Positions 3,598 to 21,672 of a stretch of DNA of 64,000 nucleotides are shown here, in pieces. Every line of letters starts with the position of its first letter. The stretch's first letter is position 1. The stretch covers positions 124,001-188,000 of the forward strand of contig NC_041682.1 of NCBI RefSeq assembly GCF_900005765.1, read 5' to 3'. A program made the position numbers and the translations under genes. The DNA is from Plasmodium relictum (taxonomy: Eukaryota > Apicomplexa > Aconoidasida > Haemosporida > Plasmodiidae). The notes beneath the pieces are model-generated. The model made no database searches, was not told the origin of the DNA, and was given only the letters and a program-made list of their open reading frames with translations.

Positions 3598-6500
3598 TTA
3601 TTTATTCTTATAAAAATTTGTGTTTGAATCATTTGCAAATGAAGTATTCATACTTTTCTTTTTAGAGTTATTATTTAAAATACTAAAACGTCCATTAATA
3701 TGATTTGTATTTATCGAATTTTCATTACACTTTTTCACTACATTTAAACTTACAATGTTATATTTCATATATTTCATATTACCATCATAAGAGTTTTTTA
3801 AATGTGTATTTTTGCTTATTTTATCATTGTATAAATTAAAGATAGAATTCATTTCGTTATTTCTTTTTAAATAAGTATTATCCTTGTAACTAATTCTATT
3901 GCTAATAAATTTTCCATAATTTACCTTATTATCGTATCTTAAATTAGAAGTTTCATTTATATATTTTTTACTACCAAAATTATTAGCATTAAAATAGTTA
4001 TTTTGATATTTCTTGTCACTATAATTACTTTTTTTCTGATTATTATTTTCTCCTTTGTTATTATATGGTAAATAATTGCATCTATAATTATTATTTTTAT
4101 TATTTTCATTATTATCGTTATTAAAATATAAATTATTTTTATAAAAATAATTATTTTTTATATAAGTAATCCTATCATCATAACTATGATATATGTAATT
4201 ATCATTATAAATATTATTTTCATAATTAAAAGCATATTTACTACTTTCATAATTATTGCTTTTATAATTATTACCTCCATCAGAATTATTAACACAGCTA
4301 ATTATTTCGTTAACCTCTTTTTTAATAAAATTTTCATTTTTCCCAATATTCACTTTATCTAATTCATTTTTAGGATAAAAGGCTTTTCCTTCATTTGAAA
4401 TAATATTATTTTTATTGTCATTTGTATGTGTTGCTATATTACTAATATTACTCTCATATGAAATAAAGCAGCCATTTGCATATCTTTTAATTATTGAAGC
4501 ATTATTTACATAATTTTTTGTAGTGTTTTTTTTTTGGTCTAATTCACTTTCTTTTAAAATATTCGTGCTTAAATATTTCTTTAAATAATCCATTATATAA
4601 TTACTTTTGTTATTCTTTTTCAAATTGTTATCTTTATCTGCATCTTTACATATAGATTCACTATCATTTTGATATTGATCATAAATAAATACTTCTTTAT
4701 CATATTTATTATTTGTTTCATAAGAATTAATTTTATCTTTATTTTTTTGATCTAATGATAGAAATAAAACCTTTTTTGTATTCTCTTTATAATTACATTC
4801 TTTGATTTCATATGATTTTTCTTTTTCATCATAATGGCTTCCATTAATTAATTTTTTATAATTAGAAAATTCAACATTTTTTTTTTGCAAAATACTTTTT
4901 AATAATTTATATTTTATATAAGAAATTTTTTTTTTTTCATGAGCGTTCACTTGATTTCTTATTAAAATATCATCTTCTTTGCGGGATTTTAAAATCTCCT
5001 TTAATAATATTCTATCTTTTAACTTGAGATTGCTTTTAAATACTTTTTTTTGGATAGCGATATTATTGCCATTATCCTGGATACAATTTTTTTTTTTTGC
5101 CTTACTTAAACTACATGATGATATTTCTTTTATATTTAATTTTTTTACTTTTGGTTGATTATATAAATTTATAAATGAATATGTTTTTTTAACCTTTTTT
5201 TTTTCATTTTCATCTTTTTTTCTTTCTTTTATTTCTTTTGTTTCTTTCGATCTATGTTCTTTGTTTAGCTTTTCTTTTATATGATTTATTTTCTTTTCAT
5301 TATTTTTATTTTTTTTTTCTTTTACTCTTTTTACTTGTTTTCTTTTATCTTCCTTAATTTCTTTTACTTTCTTCATTTTGCTTTTTCTTTTCCCTTCTTC
5401 TCTTTTTCTTTCCTTTTTTTCTTTTTCTTTTTCATTTCCTTTTTCTCTTTCTTTTTCTTCTTTTTCTTTCCCTTTTTCCTTAATTTTATTAATTAAATTT
5501 GTTTTTAATTGTATTTTTTTATTAGGAATGTTTTTTGTTTTATTTTTTTTTAAACATGTGTGAATTCTAGAGTTTACGTTTCTAATATTTCTAAGAAAAT
5601 TATTTTCTTCTATATCATATTTTTTTTCATTTGTTAGTGTATTTGATTTCCTTTTTTCATTTGAAAAATTATTTTTTCTTTGTATATCTATGTGAGGATT
5701 TTTATTTTCATAAATCATATCATTTTTTTCATTAGAAGTTTTATTTTCTATCAAACAATTTAAATTGTTACAAGAAGAAAAATTATCTGTTCTATTAATT
5801 GTATAAGAATATATAATAAAGGCAAAAGAATCTAAAAGGAGGATACATCTATTTTTTTTTTTATCTAAGATATTTTCCGTTAAAATAAAATTTTCACTAT
5901 TATAATAAAAAAATTCACATAACCATGTATTTTCATATAAGATATTAAAATATATACAATCCATTTTGTTATTTTTTGTTTTTGAAGAATTAAAAGAACA
6001 TAGATGATAAATGTAAGAATTATTATTTTCCTTTGTTGCAATATAAAATAAATTATCAAAATTTTTTAATAAATTTATATGTATAATGTTATTAATATTA
6101 AGATAACGTACACACTTTAGATCAATTTTCTCATTCCCTGAAATATTTAATTTAAATAAAAATATACTATGTTTTAAAGAGCATAATAAAAAATTTTTTG
6201 ATTTATTTAAAACTAATCCTATTATTTTATCATTAAATACTTCTTTTTCTATGTTATTTGATTTTCTTACGAATTTTTTGTCAATAATTTTCTTAATAGA
6301 AAAAATAATTTGTACTTCATTTCTTCTCGAATTATTATGAAAAAATTTTTTTTGTACAAAATTTTTTCCTTCTATCTTATTGATAACTTTTACATTATTA
6401 TTTGAAATATCAAAAAAATATAAGTTGCCTTTTAATGTACCACATATTAAAATGTTATGTGAGTAAAAAACAAATGCACTGATATTTATTTTAGCTAAAG

Positions 6501-8624
6501 TTAGTAACTTAAAAGAATTAAAATTAATTAAATTCATTTTGTATAATGAATTTTCAATGTTATAAATTATATGATCATTTTCAAGTATGAAATAATTTAT
6601 TCTGTAACTTTTTTTGTAAATAAAACAAATTTCATTATTGATCAAATCATAAATTATTAATTCATTATCTGATGTTCCTAATACTAAAATATATATATCC
6701 AGCAAACAACTTGAATTTATATATTTATTCTCAGTTATATTAAAATTGATTTTTTTCAAGCTATCTTCAAATAAATTATTATGGTTGCTTTTTTTTTCTT
6801 CGCAGTAAAAAATTATACTATTTTCTTTATTTTTATATGCATCTCCTGATTTCGGTCTAAAAACTTTATTGTTTATCGAGCTATTTTTGTTAGATTTATA
6901 AATTCTAAAAGAATTTAATTTTTTTTCCAATATATTGGAAGAAAGACCATAATCTAGAATATTATTATTACTTAAAAAAAAACTATCAATTTTATTGTGC
7001 TTTTCAAATATGTCAATGCTTTTATATACTCTAAAATTATGTACGTTCATAAAAAATAATATTCCAAAAGAATTTAATATTAATATATTATTTTGAAAAA
7101 TAAAAATGGAGGCAATATTATCATTACATATTTTCTCCAAATGAACAATTTTATGTGGTTCTATAAAATCAATAATTATAATTATCCCTTTTTTAGTTCC
7201 TACAACCACAAATTTTTTGTTTTCAGAATCATTTTTTTCCTTCTTCTTTTTTATTAAGTTTTCATAATGTCTTTTTTTAATTTTTTTTTCAATAATTTTT
7301 TGTAAGTTAAAAATTATATCCATATCATTATTTTCTTTTGCATATACAAAGGTAATAATTTCAACTACATTTATTTCATCATTAATGAAATTATTAAAGT
7401 AATCATTTATATGTTTTGATATATAATTATATGAAGAATTATTCGAGATGTTTTCTATATTTAATTCGTTCTCTATATCTCTACATTTTTCTCCAAATTC
7501 TTTTTTATTTTTTTTTTCTTCCTCTATCTCTTTTATTTTTTTTGCATTTTCATCTACTTTTTTTTTCTCTTCATTCCTTTTTAAATGAGTATCCTCAAAA
7601 TAATTTTCATATGTTAACGTAGCATCATCTTTAAAACAAAAGTGACGATTTAGAATAAGCTTTTTTATAAATAAATGAAAATGAAATATAGAAAAAAAAC
7701 TATGATCTCGTTTAATTAAGGAAAATGTATTATTATCTAAATAGTAATTACATCGAAAGCTTTTATATCTTAACTTTTCATAGAGAATATAATTCTTCAA
7801 TAAGTATGTAAATATATATTCCTCATTATATATGCATACAATTCTATTAATATCTACAAATATCTTAAAATTTCTTAGTAATACATTATAACTTTTTTTA
7901 CATTTTTTAAATGGTTTTAAAAAGGAGATATAATAGAAAAAAATATCATCCTTCTTATATTTTTTAATTTTTATATAACTTAAAGCTTCCCCATTTACCT
8001 TTTTATAATATATTTTTTTAAATAATTTTTTTTTTAATTTTTTATTTTTTTTCGGCAAGCTATAAAAAGATTTACATTTTATATAATTTCTAAATGTTTT
8101 TTTTTTTTTTTTTATTTCATTTACAATTGAATACGTTCCATTTCTAATGTATTTTTCATCTTTCTTATTAAATATATTACATGAATTATATTTTTGCGAT
8201 TTTTTTATTATAAGTTTATTTAAATTCATAAAAAGATTATCATCATTTTTTATGTCATTTCTTTTTTTTTTTAAATGAAAATCATCTAACTTTTTTATGG
8301 CATTCACATACTTTCTTTTCAACAGTGTTTTTTTTTTTTTATATACAACAAAAAATACAAAAAATATTAACTTATCATAGTATTTACACAACAATAAAAT
8401 ATTCTTATCATTTAAAAAATCTATATCTAAAAAATTTTCTTTCTTTATTTTTATTTGTGTTAAAATTTTTAAATTTGATTTATTCCATAAATATATTTTT
8501 ATTCTATCTCTACTTTCTTCTGCACTTAGAATTGTTCTACAATTTTCTTTGCATCTGATGAAGATAACCTAAATATTAAAATTAAGAAAAATAATATTTA
8601 TAAATAAATGAATTCGCAAATAAA

Positions 8625-10708: not shown

Positions 10709-13462
10709 ATGAAGGAAATAATAAATAGAACAGTTATTATAGTAGAATACACTCCCGATTTGTTTTATTACAATAGTATAAAAAAGAATATATCAAATCA
10801 TGAAATACTTATTGAACTTTTATGTACATTTTTAGAAAAAAAAATACTTTATGATTCTACATGTGAAATTAGTCTTATATTATCTGGATTTCAATCAGAT
10901 GAAAAATATTCTAATAATAAATCAAATATTTACATATTAGAAAAATTGAAAAGAGAAAATTTTGATTCGTATAAAAATTTATTAAATGATATATTGTTGA
11001 ATAAAAAGTTCGGTCAAAAAAGTAGTTATAATGAAGCTTTTATGAAAGCGTTTGAGTTATTAAATAAAACTAAAAGTTCTAAAAAAGTGAAATATAAAGA
11101 TAAATTAAATAATTTCATTATATTCTTAACTTGTCAAACGAGTAAACCTATTTATTTTCGTTTTTATGAATATATTTTGAAAATTTTGAAATATTATGTA
11201 TCATTAGTAGTTATTGGATTAAATTTTAAAAGTAACACATTTTTCGATAATTTGATAGATTTAAATGAATATGTAAAAAATAATGAAAATAAAATGAAAA
11301 GGATAAGTATTGAAAATCAAATAGAATGGAATAAATTCATTCTTTTATGTGAAGGCTCTATTTATTCATATAAAGAAGCTTCTCAAAGAATAAAAAGTTA
11401 TAATTTAACTTACGATAAGTCAAAAAAGAAGTCATTAGTAAATTTTATAATTCCAAATGCAATAACGATAAATGTAGAAATATGTTCTTACACATGTGCT
11501 CAGGGAATCCCCAAACTAAATTTAAATGAAATTTTTATTGATAATTATTATGAAAATGTATCAAAAAGTTTTACTTATTCAAAAGATAAAAAAAAATGTA
11601 ACTCTTCTTACAACAATGAAGCTAATCATGAACTAGATCAATTAGAGATGTTTTCTATTCATAACAACTATCTTTATTTCAATGAAGAAAACAATTTTAA
11701 TACATTAAAGAAATATTTATCTTCTAGTTTTGAAGAAAATAAATTAGATAGAAAATATATGCTAGAAGGAAAAGTAATTAATGAAGATAATAATAAATTA
11801 AATAAAAATAAAACTATACATAATAATGTAGTAAAATATTACAAATATGGAAACAGCCATTATATGCCTATTGATAAAATAAATAGAAATATAATAAATG
11901 ATACGGATCAATATGAAATAAAATGTTTGTGTGCAATTAAAAAGGATAAAATTGATTGGGCAAATATTGTAGGAACTACTTATTTTATTGTTACTCATAA
12001 AAAAAAAAAAATGGATTTTAAAATAATGAATTATTTAATTTATTCATTGATTAAAACAAATTATATTCTAATATGTTCCTATAAAACAAAGTATTCTAAA
12101 TTTTATACTGTTGGATTAAAGCCTATATCTGAGAACTTAGCTATTTTAAATTTGTTTTTTTTAGCTTATAAGGAACATATAAATTATTTTAACTTTAATA
12201 TGATTGAAGCCGATGAAGAAAATTCTAATATATTCGATGAACTAATTGACCTATTAGATGCAAGTAAAGAGTTCTTACCAAATAAAAAAGAAATGATTGG
12301 CAATAACAATATCGGAAATAAACTTAAAAGTAATATTGATTGTACAACTAAAAATTTAGAAAAGTATAAAAAATATGCTCCGAAAAAATCTGATCGAATT
12401 GATAAAAGAAAAATTTTGAAAAAAATAAAAAAAAAAATCGAGGAACAAGGAAAACTACATAAAGAAGAAAAAGAGAATTTAAAAGAAAAAAATAATATAC
12501 AACACAATCTAGAAGAAGAAAAAGAAATGCATAAAATTATAAATCAAAATAAAGAAAAACATAAGAAAAAGAAAAATGAAAATACTGACTATAAATGTAA
12601 TTCTGATACTAATGATTATGATAATTATAGTGATAATGATGAAAACGACAACAGTAGCTATTATGATGATAATAATTTTAATAAAATTAAAAAAAAAAAT
12701 GATTTCTTTAGTTCTTACTCAATAAAAAGTATAAAGGAAAGATTATTGATTAGAGATATGCATAATATAATATTAAAAAGATTTTATGAAATGTTAGCAG
12801 GTCAGTGTAGGTTACATTTTACTTCAGAAAATAGAAATTCAAAGAATAAATTTACTAATGAAAGATATATCCCACTTCTTTATAAAAGTGAAATTAATAA
12901 ATTTCTTAATAATAAAAAAATTACGAAATTACAGGATATAATTGATAAAATAAAATTAAAATTTGCAATTAAATTAGAAAAAAATTGTATGATACAAGAT
13001 ATTTCGGAAAATAATAAAATTACTAGATTAAAAAGTTGTAATTTTAATAGTAATAATAATTTATTAAAGAAATTTAATTTAAATATAAATAATAAAATCA
13101 GTAAAAATACTAATAGTCTTTTATTAGTTGGCAAATCAAATAATTCATCTGCAAATACTGATAATGAGGATATTCATTTTTTAAATAATATAAAATTCAA
13201 AAAAGACCTTAATCAATCATATTCTTTTAAAAAATATTTTTTAAAAAATGAACTACATTTTGGTTCAGATGATGATGATGGAAATTTAGCATATACATAT
13301 AATTTATATGACGTTAATAAAATAAAAATATTGAGATTGCATAATATTGAATTATATGATACAGAAGAATTACTTGATGTTTTTAATAGAAAAAATAATT
13401 TCAGAAAAATCTACTGTACAAATGAATCAATACAGCCAGCAGAAAAAAAAATTAAAATATAA
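10709..13462 (+). CDS. Ku80-like DNA end-binding protein (candidate), 917 aa
   Basis: The gene is a single exon starting at ATG 10709. Its domain order matches eukaryotic Ku80. Residues 6-175 look like a vWA fold: a first strand VIIVEYTPDLF without the metal-binding D-x-S-x-S (as in Ku), then CEISLILSGF, a central SYNEAFMKAFELLN helix, and strands NNFIIFLTC and YYVSLVVIGLNF. Residues 241-495 resemble the Ku beta-barrel: an entry strand AITINVEICSYT, a KYYKYG segment like the family's G-(Y/F)-R-Y-G, then FKIMNYLIYSLIKTNYILIC and FYTVGLKPISENLAILNL, matching the helix, strand and L-x-P order. After it, IFDELIDLLDASKE fits the helix after the barrel, and about 680-705 (NIILKRFYEMLAG) fits the start of the C-terminal arm. 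A Lys/Glu then Asn/Asp-rich insertion separates these helices (about 540-670). Ku80 pairs with Ku70 to bind broken DNA ends. Plasmodium is usually said to lack Ku, so this needs a profile search. The alternative is a conserved Plasmodium protein with only fold-level similarity. Confidence 0.6.
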   Translation: MKEIINRTVIIVEYTPDLFYYNSIKKNISNHEILIELLCTFLEKKILYDSTCEISLILSGFQSDEKYSNNKSNIYILEKLKRENFDSYKNLLNDILLNKKFGQKSSYNEAFMKAFELLNKTKSSKKVKYKDKLNNFIIFLTCQTSKPIYFRFYEYILKILKYYVSLVVIGLNFKSNTFFDNLIDLNEYVKNNENKMKRISIENQIEWNKFILLCEGSIYSYKEASQRIKSYNLTYDKSKKKSLVNFIIPNAITINVEICSYTCAQGIPKLNLNEIFIDNYYENVSKSFTYSKDKKKCNSSYNNEANHELDQLEMFSIHNNYLYFNEENNFNTLKKYLSSSFEENKLDRKYMLEGKVINEDNNKLNKNKTIHNNVVKYYKYGNSHYMPIDKINRNIINDTDQYEIKCLCAIKKDKIDWANIVGTTYFIVTHKKKKMDFKIMNYLIYSLIKTNYILICSYKTKYSKFYTVGLKPISENLAILNLFFLAYKEHINYFNFNMIEADEENSNIFDELIDLLDASKEFLPNKKEMIGNNNIGNKLKSNIDCTTKNLEKYKKYAPKKSDRIDKRKILKKIKKKIEEQGKLHKEEKENLKEKNNIQHNLEEEKEMHKIINQNKEKHKKKKNENTDYKCNSDTNDYDNYSDNDENDNSSYYDDNNFNKIKKKNDFFSSYSIKSIKERLLIRDMHNIILKRFYEMLAGQCRLHFTSENRNSKNKFTNERYIPLLYKSEINKFLNNKKITKLQDIIDKIKLKFAIKLEKNCMIQDISENNKITRLKSCNFNSNNNLLKKFNLNINNKISKNTNSLLLVGKSNNSSANTDNEDIHFLNNIKFKKDLNQSYSFKKYFLKNELHFGSDDDDGNLAYTYNLYDVNKIKILRLHNIELYDTEELLDVFNRKNNFRKIYCTNESIQPAEKKIKI

Positions 13463-20329: not shown

Positions 20330-20890
20330 ATTACTTTAAAAATAAGAATCATTTTAATAAAAACTTAAAATATCTTTAATTTTAATGTTATCAAAATAAA
20401 TGTCATATAAATAAATACAAGAAATATTAACAATTATGAATTAAAAACAAAGAACATCCTCCAATATAAAAATAAAAAAACGAAAAATATTTTTTAAATA
20501 AAAAATTTACATTTTTAAAATTTTAATTTATAAATAAATTATTTTTCTTATTTAAAAGTTGAAATTCATATATATAACAATAGTCTTTTCTATTCTACTT
20601 CTAAATACTATTTATTTAATTTTATTTCAATTTATATATATAATTTATGTCAATAGCATATTTATAAATTAATTTTTTTTTTTTTTTATTTTTGTAATGC
20701 TACAACTATTTTAAAAATTAAGTTACAAATTTAAAAAATTTATGTTCATTTTTATAAGTGTTTATACTTGAAAAATTGTTATAATTAATATTAAAAAAAA
20801 ACTAATGATCAAATAAAAAATTAAGAGTATGTTACTTGTTCTTTATGGCATAATAAAAAAATTTTTTTTTTATAATGTAATTTAAAAACA
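20330..20890. promoter_or_regulatory. Divergent promoter region (helical-repeat gene / Alba gene)
   Basis: 561 bp of A+T-rich DNA lies between two genes reading away from each other. Poly(dA:dT) tracts are present; no specific motif stands out. Confidence 0.45.
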
Positions 20891-21672
20891 ATGATTAACG
20901 ATTTAAATAAAAAAAAGAAAAAAAAAAAAAGAAATGAAATAACAATTGAAACTATTCAAAAAGAACATTCGCCAATTTTAAAAAAAAAGAATATAGATAT
21001 TTATATTACATCTGACAAACCAATTAAGATTTATTATGATAGAATTTTAAAAATATTAAATAGTACAAAACAAGTAGATAGCATTATTGAAGGAGATAAT
21101 AAAATTAATAATTCTTTTGTATCAAATGATGAAATTCATATATATGCAGTTGGTTCCAATATAATCAAAGCTTCTTATTTAATTCAAGATATAGTTAAGC
21201 ATTATTATCAGCTTTTAAAAAATATTCAAGATTCTTCTATGAAAAACAAAAAAAAAGACATTGATATTTCTTCCTTCATAGATATTAAAATAAATAGTAA
21301 AACTCTTATTGTGAATGATAATATAATTTTAAATAAGTTTTTGATTAAAGAAGAATTTTTAAGTGATAACTTTGATGATTTAATAAATTTTTCTAAACAA
21401 TCATATAACCCAAATATTCATAAGTATATTGAAGTTAGTTTCCATTTTATTCATATTATGTATCTATATTTATTTATTTATATTTATATACACATTTATT
21501 TATTTGTTTAGTGTATAATTTAGTAAGAGTTATTCTATAGTTTAATTCATTTTAGCAGTAAGCATATTTTCTCTCATTTTACTTTTTTATTTTTTTTTTT
21601 TTTTAGAAAAATAAAGAAAGGAGACTTACAAATGTTATTATTTCATTAAAAAAAAAGAATTTCGAATCATAA
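20891..21672 (+). CDS. Alba-fold nucleic-acid-binding protein, two exons, 202 aa
   Basis: Exon 1 is 20891-21433 and exon 2 is 21607-21672. The intron has GTTAGT at its donor and a T-rich run ending ATTTTAG-type at its acceptor, phase 0. Splicing replaces an implausible Tyr/Ile tail with KNKERRLTNVIISLKKK, which fits the last Alba strand. The Alba core is visible as DIYITSDKPIKIYYDRILK, then DEIHIYAVGSNIIKASYLIQ, the conserved strand-Gly-helix unit. The N-terminus is Lys-rich, and about 60 residues (118-178) separate the core from the final strand, a longer gap than in standard Alba proteins. The pattern strand-insert-(K/R)-R-x-x-N/T-x-I recalls the RNase P/MRP subunit Rpp20/Pop7 as much as the Plasmodium ALBA family. 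It is probably an RNA-binding subunit. It sits between two putative RNA-binding repeat proteins. Confidence 0.65.

What the first reader, a model, noticed from the sequence alone, without database searches (positions are those of the whole stretch)
10709..13462. Candidate Ku80 in a genus described as lacking classical NHEJ
The protein follows Ku80 in order: a vWA-like domain without MIDAS residues, a strand opening the beta-barrel (AITINVEICSYT), a K-Y-Y-K-Y-G segment where Ku80 has G-F-R-Y-G, a helix-strand pair like the A-L-S-S-L-I-H-A-L ... V-A-I-V-R-Y region, an L-K-P motif, then the helix N-x-x-D-x-L-I-D and a C-terminal arm start. Several spacings also agree with human Ku80 as I recall it. 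Published surveys say Plasmodium has no Ku70/Ku80 or ligase IV. Either a diverged Ku80 has been missed, or some Plasmodium lineages kept it.
Basis: partly seen in the sequence, partly recalled or inferred. Interest (0 to 1): 0.92.

Follow-up and report, generated by a model that had tools for sequence, protein, structure and literature searches.

The report
Missing Ku80 of avian malaria parasites
This gene of a bird malaria parasite looks like Ku80, the published-as-absent partner of the DNA-end-binding protein Ku70, so these parasites probably kept both halves of the Ku ring although the genus is said to have lost the repair pathway it belongs to.

Summary
In detail: an intact 917-codon frame at 10709-13462 of the Plasmodium relictum genome (species). 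A whole-genome scan with Pfam Ku (PF02735) finds two genes at E<=10: this one (34.6 bits, cut-off 25) and the known Ku70, PRELSG_0411800. The one relative found, P. gallinaceum PGAL8A_00407100 (66% identical), has a fragment that passes the Ku cut-off by itself (31 bits). A human+yeast Ku80 barrel model scores P. gallinaceum well above 1000 shuffles and P. relictum just above; the Ku70 model scores neither above. Residues 20-128 align to human Ku80 20-128. Several weaker tests were negative. The genome paper reported Ku70 and said Ku80 'is not present' (PMC5880244); this is most likely that missing partner. Whole-protein Pfam scans miss it. Only one ATP-dependent DNA ligase, LIG1-like, was found, so classical end joining is unlikely; protection of DNA ends or telomeres, as in trypanosomatids, is my best guess. 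Structure prediction was off, so fold and dimer are untested.

The parts
10709..13462 (+). Ku80 candidate gene, 917 aa, single open frame (P. relictum); orthologue of P. gallinaceum PGAL8A_00407100
10709..11428 (+). N-terminal vWA-like part, aa 1-240; aa 20-128 align to human Ku80 20-128 in the same register; begins right at the N terminus as in Ku80, without the N-terminal extension seen in Ku70
11444..11494 (+). possible first strand of the barrel, FIIPNAITINVEICSYT (aa 246-262), followed by an insert up to about aa 333
   Evidence: read by eye against human CRLTIGSNLSIRIAAY; covered neither by the Pfam match nor by the alignments
11708..12193 (+). Ku beta-barrel/bridge region, aa 334-495, matching PF02735 positions 24-174 of 190
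11834..11851 (+). KYYKYG segment pairing with human QGFRYG and yeast KAYRYG of Ku80
12026..12085 (+). helix-strand pair MNYLIYSLIKTNYILICSYK pairing with human Ku80 [20 protein letters not shown]
12227..12250 (+). NIFDELID, start of the C-terminal arm, pairing with human NAVDALID
12314..12736 (+). K/N-rich low-complexity linker, aa 536-676, least conserved part (52% identity to P. gallinaceum)
12737..13459 (+). C-terminal region, aa 677-917, 62-73% identical to P. gallinaceum by segment; no Pfam match; the vertebrate DNA-PKcs-binding tail motif (recalled) not seen

Best explanation
The gene encodes a strongly diverged Ku80 subunit. With the Ku70 already known in the same genome (PRELSG_0411800, C4:439675-441447, about 300 kb away) it most likely forms the Ku ring: a vWA-like domain, a beta-barrel and bridge that thread onto a DNA end, and a C-terminal arm that wraps the partner. 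Ku-family membership and the Ku80 assignment rest on sequence statistics; fold, dimerisation and DNA binding are inferred. Because no LIG4 was found, the ring most likely does not drive classical end joining. It more likely caps broken ends and telomeres, limits resection and steers breaks towards recombination, telomere healing or ligase-I-dependent joining, as is proposed for Ku in the trypanosomatids that also lack LIG4. The role is inference, about 55% likely; the identity as Ku80 about 90%.
For: PF02735 34.6 bits over cut-off 25; two genes in the genome match at E<=10. Fragments 33.3, 33.7 and 31.5 bits. P. gallinaceum fragment 31.0 bits. Human+yeast Ku80 barrel model, aligned without the candidate: P. 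gallinaceum 14.8 and P. relictum 8.4 bits, against 8.3 as the highest of 1000 shuffles (500 per species; 712 reported) and 1.8 as the highest of 36 other open frames of the window (23 reported); human+yeast Ku70 model 2.5 and 6.4 against a shuffle maximum of 7.7. Human Ku80 vWA model: P. relictum 8.8 and P. gallinaceum 8.2 bits, 1 and 0 of 1000 shuffles as high, aligned 20-128 to 20-128 and 21-127 to 21-127. hhalign with human Ku80 21.5 against a maximum of 19.8 in 100 shuffles; with human Ku70 18.5 against 21.5. Barrel tree puts the candidates outside the five Ku70s, 82% support. Ku70 partner present (PMC5880244 section 7). Conservation 76% in the vWA part and 72% in the barrel against 52% in the linker. 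One LIG1-like ligase gene found. Precedent for Ku without Lig4: trypanosomatids (PMC6635534 section 8); loss of Ku80 alters telomeres in Leishmania mexicana (PMC8716037 abstract).
Against: Whole-protein Pfam scans of both species give no Ku match, and a 159-aa piece (aa 239-397) gives none. No PDB chain matched at E<=10. P. relictum clears the Ku80 barrel shuffles by only 0.1 bit; with full-length models (human+yeast Ku80, shuffle maximum 10.1; human Ku80, shuffle maximum 11.1) P. relictum (6.7, 4.0) lies inside the shuffle range, and P. gallinaceum (12.4, 10.5) is above only the first. A seven-member Ku model gave P. gallinaceum 13.6 (shuffle maximum 2.3, other frames 2.9) but P. relictum -4.0. 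hhalign against the human+yeast Ku80 pair scored 18.1, inside the range of 100 shuffles (maximum 22.1), though in register. The yeast Ku80 and combined Ku80 vWA models did not find the vWA part, and the combined Ku70 vWA model gave P. gallinaceum 9.1, 2 of 1000 shuffles as high. Raw identity in the barrel block is no higher to human Ku80 (16-19%) than to yeast Ku70 (17-20%) or avian Ku70 (16-22%). Ku_N found nothing in the genome, but it missed the known Ku70 too and no control rang. No fold prediction could be run. Nothing here tests expression or a telomere role.
Confidence: 0.85

Rival explanations
1. The Ku ring is a working end-joining factor: it recruits ligase I or an unseen ligase partner, giving avian parasites Ku-dependent end joining.
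For: Both Ku genes are conserved in two species. DRMBL (SNM1-type nuclease) genes are present, 2 over the cut-off, and a PI3K-like kinase frame with a sub-threshold FATC match.
Against: Single LIG1-like ATP-dependent ligase gene, no LIG4 found; no polymerase-X palm. XRCC4 was not found, but no control rang, so that is uninformative.
Confidence: 0.3
2. It is a Ku-family protein but not the Ku80 subunit: a second Ku70-like or ancestral copy with its own role.
For: Raw identity does not separate Ku80 from Ku70; the human Ku70 vWA model also matches weakly and in register, 6 and 10 of 1000 shuffles as high, and the combined Ku70 vWA model finds P. gallinaceum (9.1 bits, 2 of 1000).
Against: The Ku80 barrel model outscores the Ku70 one and the human Ku80 vWA model outscores the human Ku70 one; tree split 82%; no N-terminal extension; Ku70 is already there as a separate gene.
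Confidence: 0.07
3. A relic on the way out: both Ku genes are decaying and no longer work.
For: The P. relictum Ku70 has lost its C-terminal SAP-like part: downstream of its stop lies a remnant with 3 further in-frame stops and a frame change. Only 2 of the 50 avian-specific core genes showed blood-stage expression (PMC5880244 section 7); whether this gene is among the 50, and which two, is not known here.
Against: This frame is open over about 900 codons in both species, with the domain parts more conserved (76%, 72%) than the linker (52%); Ku70 is 82% identical between them.
Confidence: 0.06
4. Chance: a K/N-rich protein that resembles Ku by composition.
For: AT-rich genome; whole-protein scans do not report Ku; several of the weaker models do not exceed shuffles.
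Against: Two genes in the whole genome at E<=10, one of them the known Ku70; 0 of 4 scrambled controls; Ku80 barrel model above 1000 shuffles and 36 other frames.
Confidence: 0.03

Closest known systems
Eukaryotic Ku80 (XRCC5; yeast Ku80; PDB 1jeq_B, 8s82_L)
   Same: Order of parts, N terminus starting at the vWA part, [FY][RK]YG segment, barrel/bridge match, NxxDxLID arm start.
   Different: About 16-19% identity in the barrel block; insert inside the barrel region (about aa 263-333); long K/N-rich linker; different C-terminal region; no Pfam Ku_N match.
Ku70 of P. relictum and P. gallinaceum (PRELSG_0411800, PGAL8A_00014200)
   Same: Same Pfam barrel family, same two genomes.
   Different: Separate gene about 300 kb away; clear Ku70 by model; N-terminal extension; SAP-like end in P. 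gallinaceum.
Ku70/Ku80 of trypanosomatids, retained without LIG4 (PMC6635534, PMC8716037)
   Same: Parasite with both Ku subunits and no LIG4 found.
   Different: Unrelated lineage; a telomere role was tested there, not here.

Membership tests
Ku family (PF02735) | Match to the Ku beta-barrel model above the curated cut-off | tested here: met
   34.6 bits in the genome scan, 31.5-33.7 bits for three fragments, 31.0 bits for the P. gallinaceum fragment, cut-off 25; whole-protein scans negative
Ku80 subunit | Scores with Ku80 rather than Ku70 models | tested here: met
   Barrel models (P. relictum by a narrow margin), vWA against human references, tree split 82%. Against: full-length models and raw identity do not separate cleanly, combined Ku80 vWA model negative
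Ku80 subunit | vWA-like N-terminal domain | tested here: met
   Human Ku80 20-128 aligned to 20-128, 1 and 0 of 1000 shuffles as high; sequence signal only, no fold; Pfam and the yeast Ku80 model negative
Ku80 subunit | Ku70 partner in the same genome | tested here: met
   PRELSG_0411800, identical over 591 aa, PF02735 45.4 bits
Ku80 subunit | Barrel-and-bridge fold and heterodimer interface | not testable with these tools
Ku80 subunit | C-terminal PK-binding domain and DNA-PKcs tail (vertebrate type; recalled as not universal, so not disqualifying) | tested here: not met
   No Pfam match at E<=10 in aa 538-917; tail motif, recalled, not seen
Classical NHEJ pathway | DNA ligase IV | tested here: not met
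   PF04675, PF01068 and PF04679 each find one and the same gene; by coordinates 36 codons follow the last ligase domain in its frame, too few for BRCT domains (BRCT requirement recalled)
Classical NHEJ pathway | XRCC4 | tested here: inconclusive
   No match at E<=0.1, but no control genome rang
Classical NHEJ pathway | Polymerase X (palm domain PF14792) | tested here: inconclusive
   No match at E<=0.001; only 2 of 14 controls rang, none over the cut-off

The most novel reading that the evidence does not exclude
Avian malaria parasites carry a complete Ku70-Ku80 ring that outlived the loss of ligase IV and now guards chromosome ends. The pathway was lost in steps: ligase IV before the avian and mammalian lineages split, Ku only in the mammalian line.
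Probability: 0.55. Interest if true: 0.85.

Novelty: new member of a known kind. Interest (0 to 1): 0.77.

Why it matters
The genome paper of these species left a paradox: a Ku70 without its obligate partner. This gene would resolve it and correct the view that the genus has no Ku heterodimer. It would give a natural comparison, Plasmodium with and without Ku, for what Ku loss does to indels, telomeres and subtelomeric families; a link between the lost pathway and the odd features of Plasmodium genomes has been called worth exploring (PMC6635534 section 8). It also adds an unrelated case of Ku kept without ligase IV, a combination that paper calls unusual.

Tried and rejected
Pfam on the whole protein gave nothing, so fragments were scanned: three of the window's pieces containing the barrel passed the cut-off, the N-terminal 197 aa, the C-terminal 380 aa and a 159-aa piece gave no family match. 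NCBIfam gave nothing for Ku, also not for the Ku70s. PDB sequence searches gave nothing at E<=10 for the candidate or the single Ku70; the avian Ku70 profile gave one weak, apparently chance calmodulin match. The profile-profile comparison of avian Ku80 and Ku70 was too thin to decide. Global hhalign mode gave nothing useful. A first barrel model was built on an alignment that included the candidates (seven-member model 26.1 and 25.8 bits); I replaced it by one aligned without them, where it fell to -4.0 for P. relictum and 13.6 for P. gallinaceum. Searches for mammalian-Plasmodium relatives found none, but only the 7999 or 8000 candidates sharing most words were scored, so absence there is inference. 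The syntenic interval in other Plasmodium species could not be read. The PI3K-like kinase matches do not identify DNA-PKcs. Two broad paper searches listed 30 of 47 and 15 of 56 papers, most of which I did not open.

Full report
What is there. The window lies at C4:124001-188000 of a 22.6 Mb, 514-contig genome. The genome is Plasmodium relictum: the protein of its Ku70-like gene is identical to PRELSG_0411800. The finding is a single open frame of 917 codons, 10709-13462 on the + strand. A frame at 3601-8568 without a Pfam match and a SWEET-type sugar transporter at 3-1043 lie on its other side.

Is it Ku? The Pfam Ku barrel model, run over the whole genome in six frames, gives 34.6 bits here (cut-off 25). 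The only other gene matching at E<=10 is PRELSG_0411800, whose two stretches reach 49.7 bits together (two candidate frames passed the first look). Plain scans of the whole protein report nothing for either species, while fragments of 340, 296 and 163 aa reach 33.3, 33.7 and 31.5 bits. I infer that the low-complexity composition trips the program's filters; both proteins also show no precomputed Pfam domain in the protein database, which may be why the gene was overlooked. The P. gallinaceum orthologue, a 'hypothetical protein' PGAL8A_00407100, is 66% identical over 98% of the query; a 342-aa fragment of it reaches 31.0 bits. Three shuffles and one reversal of the P. relictum fragment gave 0 of 4 Ku matches.

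Which subunit? A barrel model from the two Ku80s, aligned without the candidate, scored P. gallinaceum 14.8 and P. relictum 8.4 bits; the highest of 1000 shuffles (500 per species, 712 reported) was 8.3 and of 36 other open frames of the window (23 reported) 1.8. The matching Ku70 model gave 2.5 and 6.4, inside its shuffle range (maximum 7.7). Against: full-length Ku80 models gave P. relictum 6.7 and 4.0, inside the shuffle range (maxima 10.1 and 11.1), and P. gallinaceum 12.4 and 10.5; the seven-member Ku model supports P. gallinaceum (13.6, shuffle maximum 2.3) but not P. relictum (-4.0). Five-member Ku70 models gave -26.1 to -14.7 (all).

The vWA part scored 8.8 (P. relictum) and 8.2 bits (P. 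gallinaceum) with human Ku80, with 1 and 0 of 1000 shuffles as high, aligned 20-128 to 20-128 and 21-127 to 21-127. It scored 5.6 and 5.5 with human Ku70 (6 and 10 of 1000 as high). For scale, the avian Ku70s scored 1.3 and 6.4 with human Ku70 (84 and 3 of 1000). The yeast Ku80 and the combined human+yeast Ku80 vWA models did not find the candidate; the combined Ku70 model gave P. gallinaceum 9.1 (2 of 1000) and P. relictum 0.8 (171 of 1000), while the avian Ku70s gave 17.0 and 19.7 (all).

A nine-sequence barrel tree separated the five Ku70s from human and yeast Ku80 plus the candidates with 82% support; that alignment included the candidates, and raw identities do not separate the subunits. 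hhalign gave 21.5 against human Ku80 (100 shuffles, maximum 19.8), 18.5 against human Ku70 (maximum 21.5) and 18.1 against the Ku80 pair (maximum 22.1), in register. Taken together I judge Ku family membership about 95% and Ku80 about 90% likely.

Anatomy. vWA-like part aa 1-240; possible first barrel strand aa 246-262 (by eye only); insert to about 333; barrel and bridge 334-495; arm start 507-514; K/N-rich linker 536-676; C-terminal region 677-917. Identity to P. gallinaceum is 76% in the vWA part, 63% for aa 241-333, 72% in the barrel, 52% in the linker, and 62-73% in the C-terminal segments. This gradient is what selection on a folded core would leave; codon-level rates could not be computed for want of P. 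gallinaceum DNA.

What does it do? The Ku70 partner is there. Three ligase-domain models each find one and the same gene on C14, at E<=10 for PF01068 and PF04679 and E<=0.001 for PF04675. By coordinates only 36 codons of its 857-aa frame follow the last ligase domain, too few for the BRCT domains of LIG4 (recalled), so I read it as LIG1; I did not scan that frame further, and a BRCT exon beyond an intron is not excluded. No polymerase-X palm was found, with weak controls. XRCC4 was not found, without a working control. Two DRMBL (SNM1-type) genes pass the cut-off and a third is below it. So the set looks like Ku without ligase IV. That combination is described, and called unusual, in trypanosomatids, where Ku is reported not to take part in classical joining and to have telomere roles (PMC6635534, passages and section 8). 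In Leishmania mexicana loss of Ku lengthens telomeres without harm to genome integrity (PMC8716037, abstract). In subtelomeric regions of P. falciparum telomere healing was the commonest repair seen (PMC5550746, passages). I therefore favour end and telomere protection, marked as inference.

What is in print. Bohme and colleagues reported Ku70 in both avian species and wrote that a Ku80 orthologue 'is not present' (PMC5880244, passages, section 7). Searches for Plasmodium gallinaceum with Ku70, Ku70 with avian malaria, Ku80 with relictum, Ku70 with Haemoproteus, and the gene identifiers listed that paper and one other, a bird MHC paper by its title. The identifier PGAL8A_00407100 was in no main text. 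The library holds open-licence PubMed Central papers only, and supplements could not be read, so the gene may sit in a supplementary table of avian-specific genes of unknown function.

Evolution. Toxoplasma and Neospora kept all components and Plasmodium was scored as having lost them (PMC6635534, passages). Ku in two avian species, and no mammalian-Plasmodium relative listed (capped searches), suggests that ligase IV went first and Ku later in the mammalian line. In P. relictum the Ku70 tail, which carries a SAP-like segment in P. gallinaceum (15.5 bits, below the cut-off of 23.9), is broken by stops and a frame change.

Verdict. Not shown: fold, dimer, DNA binding, expression, role.

Noticed in passing
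L002:638-909 (-), C4, outside the window: Downstream of the P. relictum Ku70 stop lies a remnant of the C-terminal SAP-like tail that P. gallinaceum keeps, with 3 further in-frame stops and a frame change.
   Followed up: partly
P0005 (unnamed assembly contig of 2259 bases): A 655-aa Ku70-like protein 33% identical to the avian Ku70, Pfam Ku 39.9 bits, from an unnamed source; may be another haemosporidian.
   Followed up: no
L010 (C11) and L009 (C14): Frames of 4135 and 8319 aa with PI3/PI4-kinase domains over the cut-off (35.7 and 39.0 bits); the first also has a FATC match below its cut-off, so they may be PIKK-type kinases.
   Followed up: partly
window 10709-13462 and P0002: Whole-protein hmmscan misses a domain that fragments show at 31-34 bits; other low-complexity Plasmodium proteins may hide domains the same way.
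   Followed up: partly
window 20876-21508: Alba-like match just below the Pfam cut-off (21.4 against 25 bits).
   Followed up: no
C12:1652665-1652970 and C9:826014-826196, outside the window: Two DRMBL (SNM1/Artemis-type) genes over the cut-off.
   Followed up: no
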